A stretch of 64,000 nt of DNA, taken from the NCBI GenBank assembly GCA_021785515.1, contig JAJYEX010000001.1, positions 248,001-312,000 on the forward strand, in the 5' to 3' direction. Below the pieces are notes generated by a model, which worked only from the letters and a program-made list of their open reading frames with translations, was not told the origin of the DNA and did not search any database. The position numbers were made by a program, and so were the translations under genes. This DNA is from Pseudomonadota bacterium. Its GTDB lineage: Bacteria; Pseudomonadota; Gammaproteobacteria; Acidiferrobacterales; UBA6901. Of the stretch, positions 37,908-40,221 are shown in pieces (within the stretch, counting starts at the first letter, position 1; every line of letters starts with the position of its first letter).

Positions 37908-37916
37908 GGTTCGCAC

Positions 37917-38216
37917 TCAGGTTTTATTCTTGCCTTCCAGGGCCACAATCGGCTTGTCCGTAAAGAGATAATCGCGCAGTTCCTTGTCAAAGGCGGGATC
38001 GTGGCGGCGGATCCATTCCAGGATCATCGCCGCATGCTCCTTCTCTTCGTCGCGATTATGCGCAAGGATCGCACGCAGTTCCTTGTCCTTGCAGGCATCC
38101 ACCCGCTGGTTGTACCAGTCGGCCGCCTCCAGTTCCTCCATGAGCGAGACGATCGCGCGATGCATGTCGCGCGTGTCCTCCCGCAATTCGGTCTCGTGAT
38201 ACCCCTCGTTCGCCAT
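37917..38216 (-). CDS. Encapsulated-ferritin-family (EncFtn-like) protein without targeting tail
   Basis: A 99-aa two-helix protein closely resembling encapsulated ferritins such as that of Rhodospirillum rubrum, which form a ferroxidase site at a dimer interface. By alignment from memory, the ferroxidase residues are present: Glu28, Tyr35, Glu58 and His61 in EELEAADWYNQRVDA and HNRDEEKEHAAM, with Glu27/Glu30 at the accessory site. The protein stops soon after the second helix (ALEGKNKT) and lacks the C-terminal encapsulin-targeting peptide. No encapsulin gene is in the window. Strong ribosome site GAGGAGG upstream. Probably oxidises Fe2+ in a free or alternative assembly. Confidence 0.85.
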   Translation of the reverse strand: MANEGYHETELREDTRDMHRAIVSLMEELEAADWYNQRVDACKDKELRAILAHNRDEEKEHAAMILEWIRRHDPAFDKELRDYLFTDKPIVALEGKNKT

Positions 38217-38275: not shown

Positions 38276-39622
38276 TCAGATGCCGTATGCTTCCCGCAGC
38301 AGGGTCAGCGGATGCTCCGGAGCCTTTCCGGTGCGCAGACCGTTTTCAATCTGATGACCCGCCATCGGGCAATCGCTGCTGTAATGATCCGCTTCGGACT
38401 GCCGCACGCGATCAACCACCGGCCCTGCGATCTTCATCGAGCTCTCGTGAAACTCGCTTTTCACAGCATAGGTCCCGTTATGTCCGGAACAGCGCTCGAT
38501 TGCGTCCACCTGTGTCTGCGGTATCAGCTGCAGGAGCTCGCGCGTCTTCATGCCGATGTTCTGAACTCGCAAATGACAGGCGACGTGGTAGGAAATCTTG
38601 CCTAGCGGCTTCTTGAAATCGGTGCGGAGCTTACCGTACTTATGACGCAGCATTAGATATTCGAAGGGGTCGAATATCGCCGCTCGCACCTTCGCGACCT
38701 CCGGGTCATCGGGAAACATCAGCGGCAACTCCTGCTTAAACATCAGCACGCAGGACGGTACCGGCGCAACGATGTCCCAGCCATCATCCACCAGCCGCGC
38801 CAATAGCGGAACGTTGATTTCCTTGGCACGCTCAACGGCGTCGAGATCCCCGAGTTCGAGCTTCGGCATGCCGCAGCAGCGCCCCTTCTCGGCCACCCTC
38901 ATCAGAATACCGTTGTGACGGAAGACCGCCACGAGATCATCATTGAGCTGCGGCTCATTATAGTTGCCATAGCAGGTAGCAAACAGCGCGACACGCCCGC
39001 GGGTTGGCCCTGTGACCTCGGTCTGTGCGGGCGCGTCGTCGTCACCGCGCCACTGCCTTAGGAAAGTATCGTGGTGATATTCGGGCACAGAGGCGTCCGG
39101 ATGCACATGCAGGGTCTTGTCGAGCACTTTGCGAAACAAACCGGTACGGTTCGCGGCATTAACGACCTGCACGACAATGGGTATTCCTGCCAGGCGCCCG
39201 ACGGCATCAGTGTTCGTCAGGACCCGATCCCGCAATTTTGCCCTGCCTTGGCGAAACCGGACAGCCTTGGCGCGCAACATCAGGTGCGGAAAGTCCAGAT
39301 TCCACGGATGAGGCGGCACGTAGGGGCACTTGGTCATGTAGCACATGTCGCACAGATAGCAGTGGTCGGCAACCTGCCAGAACACGGACTTTGCCACGCC
39401 ATCGAGCTCCATCGTCTCAGACGCGTCGATGGCATCGAACAGGGTCGGGAATGCCTGACACAGGCTGAAGCAGCGACGGCATCCGTGACAGATGTCAAAG
39501 ACGCGCTCCATCTCCTTGATCAGCGCATCTTCCTCGTAAAACCCGGAGTTCTTCCAGTCGAGCGGATGGCGCACCGGCGCCTCTAGATTGCCTTCCCGAT
39601 CCCCACCTGACATCCCAACCAT
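38276..39622 (-). CDS. HdrD/GlpC-like iron-sulfur oxidoreductase subunit
   Basis: A 448-aa cytoplasmic electron-transfer protein. N-terminal ferredoxin part with two [4Fe-4S] motifs: C45, C48, C51, C55 and C88, C91, C94, C99-P. Two CCG-type domains follow. The first is fairly complete (C217, CCG at 249-251, C291). The second is degenerate: CSG at 378-380 instead of CCG, and CPMA at 418 instead of CxxC. Relatives (GlpC, GlcF, HdrD) pass electrons to or from quinones, flavins or disulfides. Between rubrerythrin and the EncFtn-like gene, it may supply electrons to the di-iron proteins; that is inference. The start at 39622 has AAGGTG upstream. Confidence 0.82.
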   Translation of the reverse strand: MVGMSGGDREGNLEAPVRHPLDWKNSGFYEEDALIKEMERVFDICHGCRRCFSLCQAFPTLFDAIDASETMELDGVAKSVFWQVADHCYLCDMCYMTKCPYVPPHPWNLDFPHLMLRAKAVRFRQGRAKLRDRVLTNTDAVGRLAGIPIVVQVVNAANRTGLFRKVLDKTLHVHPDASVPEYHHDTFLRQWRGDDDAPAQTEVTGPTRGRVALFATCYGNYNEPQLNDDLVAVFRHNGILMRVAEKGRCCGMPKLELGDLDAVERAKEINVPLLARLVDDGWDIVAPVPSCVLMFKQELPLMFPDDPEVAKVRAAIFDPFEYLMLRHKYGKLRTDFKKPLGKISYHVACHLRVQNIGMKTRELLQLIPQTQVDAIERCSGHNGTYAVKSEFHESSMKIAGPVVDRVRQSEADHYSSDCPMAGHQIENGLRTGKAPEHPLTLLREAYGI

Positions 39623-39740: not shown

Positions 39741-40163
39741 TTACTTACCGAGGCCGTCCAGAGCCTTCTGGAAACGGTTGGCATGGGAGCGCTCGGCCTT
39801 GGCGAGGGTCTCGAACCAGTCGGCAATCTCGCCAAAGCCCTCGGCCCGGGCGGTTTTCGCCATGCCCGGATACATATCGGTGTACTCATGGGTTTCCCCG
39901 GCGATGGCCGACTTCAGGTTATCGCTGGTGCTGCCAATGGGCAGCCCCGTGGCCGGGTCCCCCACCGCCTCCATGTACTCCAGATGCCCGTGGGCATGGC
40001 CGGTCTCGCCTTCGGCGGTGGAACGGAATACCGCTGAGACATCGTTGTAGCCCTCAACGTCGGCCTTGCCGGCAAAGTAGAGATAGCGCCGGTTCGCCTG
40101 TGACTCTCCGGCGAAGGCGGCTTTAAGGTTATCGTGGGTTTTGGTGCCATTCAGGCTCTTCAT
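39741..40163 (-). CDS. Rubrerythrin, di-iron domain only
   Basis: A 140-aa ferritin-like di-iron protein of the rubrerythrin family, expected to reduce hydrogen peroxide. Likely di-iron ligands are E20, E53-x2-H56, E90 (with E93) and E124-x2-H127 in the four-helix bundle. The C-terminal rubredoxin domain of classical rubrerythrins (two CxxC) is absent and there is no cysteine at all, so electrons must come from a partner. The start at 40163 has GGAGA seven bases upstream; an in-frame TTG two codons earlier is less likely. First gene of the operon, behind a promoter overlapping a PerR-box-like palindrome. Confidence 0.92.
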
Positions 40164-40221
40164 ACTCAAGTCTCCATGTCATTCGTCGTGGATTTCTCAA
40201 AGTAAAGGCTTCAGCTCTTAC

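What the first reader, a model, noticed from the sequence alone, without database searches (positions are those of the whole stretch)
37917..38216. EncFtn-family ferritin lacking the encapsulin-loading peptide
Ferroxidase residues corresponding to the known EncFtn Glu32, Tyr39, Glu62 and His65 are all present (Glu28, Tyr35, Glu58, His61). The protein ends at residue 99, just after the second helix, without the usual disordered linker and C-terminal targeting peptide. No encapsulin gene is in the 64-kb window. It could be a free annular ferroxidase or could use a different shell or acceptor. EncFtn without a shell oxidises but does not store iron, so the iron would need another destination.
Basis: partly seen in the sequence, partly recalled or inferred. 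Interest (0 to 1): 0.66.

Follow-up and report, generated by a model that had tools for sequence, protein, structure and literature searches.

The report
Shell-less ferroxidase in rubrerythrin operon
This is a short, already recognised type of iron-oxidising ferritin that works without the protein shell its relatives live in, and here it sits inside a hydrogen-peroxide defence operon, which suggests what these orphan ferritins do.

Summary
The gene is real: minus strand 37917-38216, 99 aa, a strong match to Pfam EncFtn-like. All four ferroxidase residues are present. There is no targeting peptide and no Family 1 encapsulin anywhere in the 99.9%-complete genome. Lacking the peptide is not unusual. 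The protein belongs to the known 'Non-EncFtn' or 's-FLP' class, whose type member is Nitrosomonas NE0167 (PDB 3k6c, 83-84% identical). Two things were added here.

(1) A 2024 review calls it unclear whether s-FLPs are encapsulated. In 276 genomes of the class, all 17 encapsulin genomes carry their own adjacent ferritin; the 16 distinct sequences read end in a targeting peptide or its remnant. Of 63 genomes with a non-adjacent s-FLP, 59 have no encapsulin (odds ratio 1.04).

(2) Here the gene is the third of four in a rubrerythrin - Fe-S oxidoreductase (RFO) - s-FLP - DUF3501 operon, the 'aerobic-type rubrerythrin' cluster. That order recurs on one strand in many families. 18 of 63 s-FLPs lie beside DUF3501, against 0.1 expected. 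Others lie beside peroxiredoxin, thioredoxin reductase, glutathione reductase or catalase.

Best reading: a free ring-shaped ferroxidase that removes Fe2+ while its operon partners remove H2O2. This is inferred, not shown.

The parts
37917..38216 (-). EncFtn-like short ferritin-like protein (s-FLP), 99 aa; ferroxidase residues E28, Y35, E58, H61; entry-site residues E27/E30; W34; no targeting peptide
39741..40169 (-). aerobic-type rubrerythrin, about 140 aa, no rubredoxin domain (first gene of the cluster)
   Evidence: PF02915 104 bits and no rubredoxin match
38276..39622 (-). [quoted passage not shown]
   Evidence: PF02754; GlpC model 244 bits, below its cut-off of 278; PMC5114695
37296..37908 (-). 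DUF3501 protein, about 203 aa from the ATG at about 37908 (a GTG at 37916 would give 206 aa)
   Evidence: PF12007 248 bits
40231..40259 (-). promoter-like site TTGACT-17-TAGAAT upstream of rubrerythrin; possible operon promoter
   Evidence: weak, 3 sites found against 2.0 expected by chance

Best explanation
The gene encodes a shell-less EncFtn-type ferroxidase (s-FLP class). It most likely forms the same open D5 ring of ten as NE0167, with a di-iron centre at each two-fold dimer interface, free in the cytosol. It is co-transcribed as part of an aerobic-type rubrerythrin peroxide-defence module: rubrerythrin reduces H2O2 with electrons delivered through RFO, and the s-FLP oxidises Fe2+ so that Fenton chemistry is suppressed. 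Shown here: sequence family, ligand conservation, absence of a targeting peptide and of a Family 1 encapsulin, operon layout and its recurrence. Inferred: ring assembly (from 83-84% identity to 3k6c), ferroxidase activity, co-transcription, division of labour with rubrerythrin. Unknown: the acceptor of Fe3+ and the role of DUF3501.
For: Fold and site. No shell. Across 276 genomes only 4 of 63 s-FLP genomes hold an encapsulin (13 of 213 others do; odds ratio 1.04, p=1), while all 17 encapsulin genomes have their own adjacent ferritin. The 16 distinct encapsulin-adjacent ferritins read are 116-134 aa and end in a targeting peptide (GSLGIGSLK, FTVGDLKG, STIGPLKG and similar; one ends in a shortened FTVGKP). 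Nearly all others are 91-105 aa and none has one. In 3 of the 4 genomes with both, the s-FLP lies in the rubrerythrin cluster while the peptide-bearing copy lies at the shell. Operon: 37 of 39 distinct cluster s-FLPs have the order (RBR) RFO s-FLP DUF3501 on one strand; 18 of 63 lie next to DUF3501 against 0.09 expected. Other peroxide-defence contexts: in G114 rubrerythrin, RFO, DUF3501, peroxiredoxin, s-FLP, thioredoxin reductase (L192); in L078 s-FLP, Prx5-like, glutathione reductase; among the 98 closest same-strand neighbours of solo s-FLPs, peroxiredoxin and redoxin were the commonest families (4), with 2 catalases. The genome's second rubrerythrin-DUF3501 pair follows an OxyR-like regulator.
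Against: No biochemistry or expression data. About three quarters of s-FLP loci are outside the rubrerythrin cluster, so the partnership is not obligatory. Cluster loci are related to each other and the 93-column tree resolves few forks, so the number of independent associations is uncertain. The peroxidase neighbours of solo loci are few (about 4 lineages). The AlphaFold monomer is low confidence (pLDDT 59), so ring assembly rests on homology.
Confidence: 0.55

Rival explanations
1. The s-FLP is a general iron-homeostasis ferroxidase. Its place in the rubrerythrin operon reflects shared regulation or operon drift, with no direct partnership.
For: 120 distinct s-FLPs are solo with varied neighbours; s-FLP and DUF3501 occur in the same genomes well short of always (46 of 63).
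Against: The same gene order on one strand recurs across many family-level groups, 18 adjacent against 0.09 expected; the commonest neighbours of solo copies are also peroxide-defence genes.
Confidence: 0.22
2. The s-FLP is an iron chaperone or small iron reservoir that metallates rubrerythrin and/or repairs Fe-S clusters (RFO) after peroxide damage, rather than a detoxifying ferroxidase.
For: Operon with two iron enzymes; the open ring cannot mineralise iron on its own (PMC5012862 for the R. rubrum relative); this genome's only PF00210 match is a bacterioferritin-like gene beside an alpha-carboxysome shell gene.
Against: The ferroxidase site is fully conserved, which fits oxidation; no Fe2+-releasing partner is evident.
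Confidence: 0.17
3. The s-FLP is loaded into an encapsulin through an unrecognised signal in its short tail, as left open in PMC11202242.
For: Only the theoretical argument in PMC11202242; four genomes hold both an s-FLP and an encapsulin.
Against: 59 of 63 s-FLP genomes, including this one, have no Family 1 encapsulin, and occurrence of the two is independent. Where both exist, a separate ferritin sits beside the shell gene. s-FLP tails show no targeting-peptide motif and vary in length and sequence.
Confidence: 0.03
4. The s-FLP is housed in a different shell (Family 2 encapsulin, carboxysome or another microcompartment).
For: The genome has an alpha-carboxysome shell gene (CsoS1) beside a bacterioferritin-like gene.
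Against: The s-FLP is not linked to that locus; no Family 2a match, and Family 2b matches are weak, partial and below cut-off (2a had no ringing control).
Confidence: 0.03

Closest known systems
NE0167 of Nitrosomonas europaea (PDB 3k6c), the s-FLP type structure
   Same: 83-84% identical over the fold, 95 against 99 aa, same ferroxidase residues, no targeting peptide; decamer in the crystal (PMC11202242)
   Different: NE0167 has a tail a few residues shorter and Leu at the Trp34 position
'Non-EncFtn' group of He et al. 2016 (PMC5012862)
   Same: EncFtn relatives lacking the encapsulin localisation sequence
   Different: that paper gives a tree position only; no genomic context or function was stated in the passages read
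Encapsulated ferritin EncFtn Rru_A0973 (PDB 5da5)
   Same: same two-helix fold and ligand set Glu32/Tyr39/Glu62/His65, entry site Glu31/Glu34, Trp38
   Different: carries a linker and targeting peptide and needs the encapsulin for iron storage
Aerobic-type rubrerythrin - RFO - DUF3501 cluster (Cardenas et al. 2016, PMC5114695)
   Same: the three flanking genes are exactly this cluster
   Different: an EncFtn-like gene is inserted between RFO and DUF3501; the word search of that paper found no mention of an encapsulated ferritin

Membership tests
EncFtn-like (PF22277) / s-FLP | profile match to EncFtn-like | tested here: met
   141 bits against cut-off 27
EncFtn-like (PF22277) / s-FLP | ferroxidase ligands Glu32/Tyr39/Glu62/His65 and entry site Glu31/34 | tested here: met
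   E28, Y35, E58, H61, E27, E30; invariant in relatives
EncFtn-like (PF22277) / s-FLP | about 95-105 aa, no linker or targeting peptide | tested here: met
   99 aa, tail ALEGKNKT
EncFtn-like (PF22277) / s-FLP | annular D5 decamer with iron at dimer interfaces | not testable with these tools
   monomer model only, low confidence; best Foldseek match 3k6c, E=3.7e-07
Encapsulin cargo ferritin (FLP-TP) | C-terminal targeting peptide | tested here: not met
   absent; present in all or nearly all encapsulin-adjacent homologues
Encapsulin cargo ferritin (FLP-TP) | encapsulin shell gene adjacent or in the genome | tested here: not met
   PF04454: 0 matches in the 99.9%-complete genome
Aerobic-type rubrerythrin cluster | rubrerythrin without rubredoxin domain, plus DUF3501 and RFO, co-located | tested here: met
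Aerobic-type rubrerythrin cluster | EncFtn-like gene as a regular fourth member | tested here: inconclusive
   common but not universal: DUF3501 in 126 of 276 genomes, s-FLP next to it in 18

The most novel reading that the evidence does not exclude
s-FLPs are a distinct, shell-independent branch of EncFtn that serves as the Fe2+-removing subunit of peroxide-reducing modules (rubrerythrin/RFO/DUF3501 in many families, peroxiredoxin with thioredoxin or glutathione reductase in others). In the rubrerythrin cluster a tail longer by about 6 residues (99 aa or more in 30 of 39 cluster proteins against 18 of 120 solo ones) acts as the docking or iron-binding element.
Probability: 0.35. Interest if true: 0.6.

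Novelty: new member of a known kind. Interest (0 to 1): 0.4.

Why it matters
The 2024 review of encapsulated ferritins leaves open whether short FLPs are encapsulated. The genome counts here argue clearly that they are not. The recurring operon also gives the class a testable physiological role and gives the uncharacterised DUF3501/RFO system an iron-oxidising partner. In practice, the curated model TIGR04535 ('encapsulin-associated ferritin-like protein') scores this shell-less protein above its cut-off (130 against 125 bits), so automatic annotation will mislabel such proteins.

Tried and rejected
Encapsulin elsewhere in the genome: none found. Truncated or frameshifted EncFtn-TP: rejected, because close relatives end at the same place and the length class is fixed. 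Counting independent origins of the cluster association on a tree: not conclusive; 93 columns, 3 starred forks, and one origin is not excluded. AlphaFold monomer: low confidence, used only for helix boundaries. A classical ferritin as universal iron acceptor: 46 of 63 s-FLP genomes have a strong PF00210 match, 12 only a weak one and 5 none, so it is not obligatory. Literature joining s-FLP to the rubrerythrin cluster: none found in the held library; the library is incomplete.

Full report
What is there. The ORF lies on the minus strand, 38216 to 37917, with an ATG start, an AGGAGG Shine-Dalgarno sequence a few bases upstream, and 99 codons. It is an EncFtn-like protein by Pfam (141 bits, cut-off 27) and by NCBIfam TIGR04535 (130 bits, cut-off 125). 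The best solved relative is NE0167 of Nitrosomonas europaea, PDB 3k6c (E=3.2e-45; 83-84% identical in the Foldseek alignment). The next are the R. rubrum and H. ochraceum encapsulated ferritins. They, with the entry-site pair E27/E30 and W34, are invariant in 101 close relatives and in 175 sequences that include true encapsulin cargo. A short helix at about residues 74-85 follows the two long ones.

It is a known class. He et al. 2016 (PMC5012862) already distinguished a 'Non-EncFtn' group lacking the encapsulin sequence, and used 3k6c as their molecular replacement model.

Testing encapsulation. The window's own genome (3.05 Mb, 99.9% complete) has no PF04454 encapsulin. It has no Family 2a match, although no control genome rang for that model, and only weak partial Family 2b matches below cut-off, as most control genomes also have. 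In 276 genomes of the class that are at least 90% complete, I located PF22277, PF04454 and PF12007 by coordinates (tallied). Of 81 strong EncFtn-like loci, 18 lie beside an encapsulin, in 17 genomes, and those 17 are all the encapsulin genomes. The other 63 loci lie in 63 genomes, of which only 4 have an encapsulin, against 13 of the remaining 213 (odds ratio 1.04, p=1.0). Reading the proteins, the 16 distinct encapsulin-adjacent ferritins are 116-134 aa with a targeting peptide (one, L221, has a shortened end FTVGKP), while nearly all the rest are 91-105 aa (one is 122 aa) without one. In G068, G230 and G272 both kinds coexist: one copy beside the shell gene and the s-FLP beside DUF3501. I conclude that s-FLPs are not encapsulin cargo.

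The operon. On the same strand, upstream to downstream, are rubrerythrin (39741-40169; PF02915, no rubredoxin domain), RFO (38276-39622; CCG domain, GlpC-like), the s-FLP, and DUF3501 (PF12007, starting about 8 bp after the s-FLP stop if the ATG at about 37908 is used). This is the 'aerobic-type rubrerythrin' cluster of Cardenas et al. (PMC5114695), also found as a trio in mitochondria-targeted form in protists (PMC7050145). Neither text, as searched, mentions an EncFtn-like member. A promoter-like site lies upstream of rubrerythrin (weak). Among distinct sequences, 39 s-FLPs lie in this cluster. In 37 the order is (RBR) RFO, s-FLP, DUF3501 on one strand, and in 2 it is RBR, RFO, DUF3501, s-FLP. 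In the class sample 18 of 63 s-FLPs lie within 3 kb of DUF3501 against 0.09 expected by chance. s-FLP and DUF3501 also tend to occur in the same genomes (46 of 63 against 80 of 213; odds ratio 4.5, p=7e-7, not corrected for relatedness).

Outside the cluster. Most s-FLPs are solo (120 distinct sequences). Scanning 98 of their closest same-strand neighbours with Pfam, the commonest families were AhpC-TSA and Redoxin (4 each), then pyridine-nucleotide disulphide reductases (3) and GGDEF (3), with catalase in 2. Specific cases: in G114 (L192), rubrerythrin, RFO, DUF3501, peroxiredoxin, s-FLP and thioredoxin reductase lie in a row; in L078, s-FLP, a Prx5-like protein and glutathione reductase; in L183, s-FLP and glutathione reductase. 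The numbers are small and from about four lineages, but they point the same way as the rubrerythrin cluster.

Mechanism. I commit to a free ring-shaped ferroxidase that lowers Fe2+ while the operon partners remove H2O2. EncFtn of R. rubrum oxidises but cannot mineralise iron on its own (PMC5012862), so the Fe3+ needs an acceptor. In this genome the only PF00210 match is a bacterioferritin-like gene next to an alpha-carboxysome shell gene. Across s-FLP genomes 46 of 63 have a strong ferritin-fold match, 12 only a weak one and 5 none, so no single cage is the obligatory acceptor. Proteins in the cluster tend to have a tail longer by about 6 residues (99 aa or more in 30 of 39 cluster proteins against 18 of 120 solo ones, odds ratio 19, not corrected for relatedness), a candidate docking or metal-binding element.

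Limits. Ring assembly and activity are inferred from homology. The short protein gives a poorly resolved tree. Context counts are not independent observations. The held library lacks many subscription papers, so the operon link may have been reported elsewhere.

Noticed in passing
G000:C4 (L172:5096-6221) and window 39741-40169: The genome has a second rubrerythrin-DUF3501 pair just downstream of an OxyR-like LysR regulator, without RFO or s-FLP. The two rubrerythrin genes are 99.6% identical over 447 bp while the DUF3501 copies are only 73% identical at the DNA level, suggesting recent gene conversion or copying of rubrerythrin alone.
   Followed up: partly
L168:1474-2622 (G000:C11, near 602 kb): The only PF00210 gene of the genome is a 144-aa bacterioferritin-like protein (TIGR00754 54 bits, far below its cut-off of 125.55) beside two near-identical CsoS1-type carboxysome shell genes and a ParA-like gene.
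   Followed up: no
L153-L157 (G574, G525, G389, G341, G527) and L158-L161 (G390, G370, G437, G537): Two further groups of EncFtn-like proteins without a targeting peptide: an 'HAPRERLS/HVPREKL' type of 95-105 aa in genomes with no Family 1 encapsulin, and a divergent 104-aa 'FDQYHEPPEEL' type in large genomes, two of which have an encapsulin but not next to it.
   Followed up: partly
window 38091-38093 (residue Cys42) and neighbouring positions: s-FLP signature positions against encapsulin cargo: Cys42 (145 of 150 against 5 of 16), Ile69 (146 of 150 against 0 of 16, Leu instead), Glu79 (142 of 150 against 2 of 16).
   Followed up: no
L104/L173 (G112) and L105/L174 (G318): Two peptide-bearing encapsulin cargo ferritins are unusually close in sequence to s-FLPs (MAHEGYHEPVEELTDETRDMHRA...), suggesting a switch between the two classes.
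   Followed up: no
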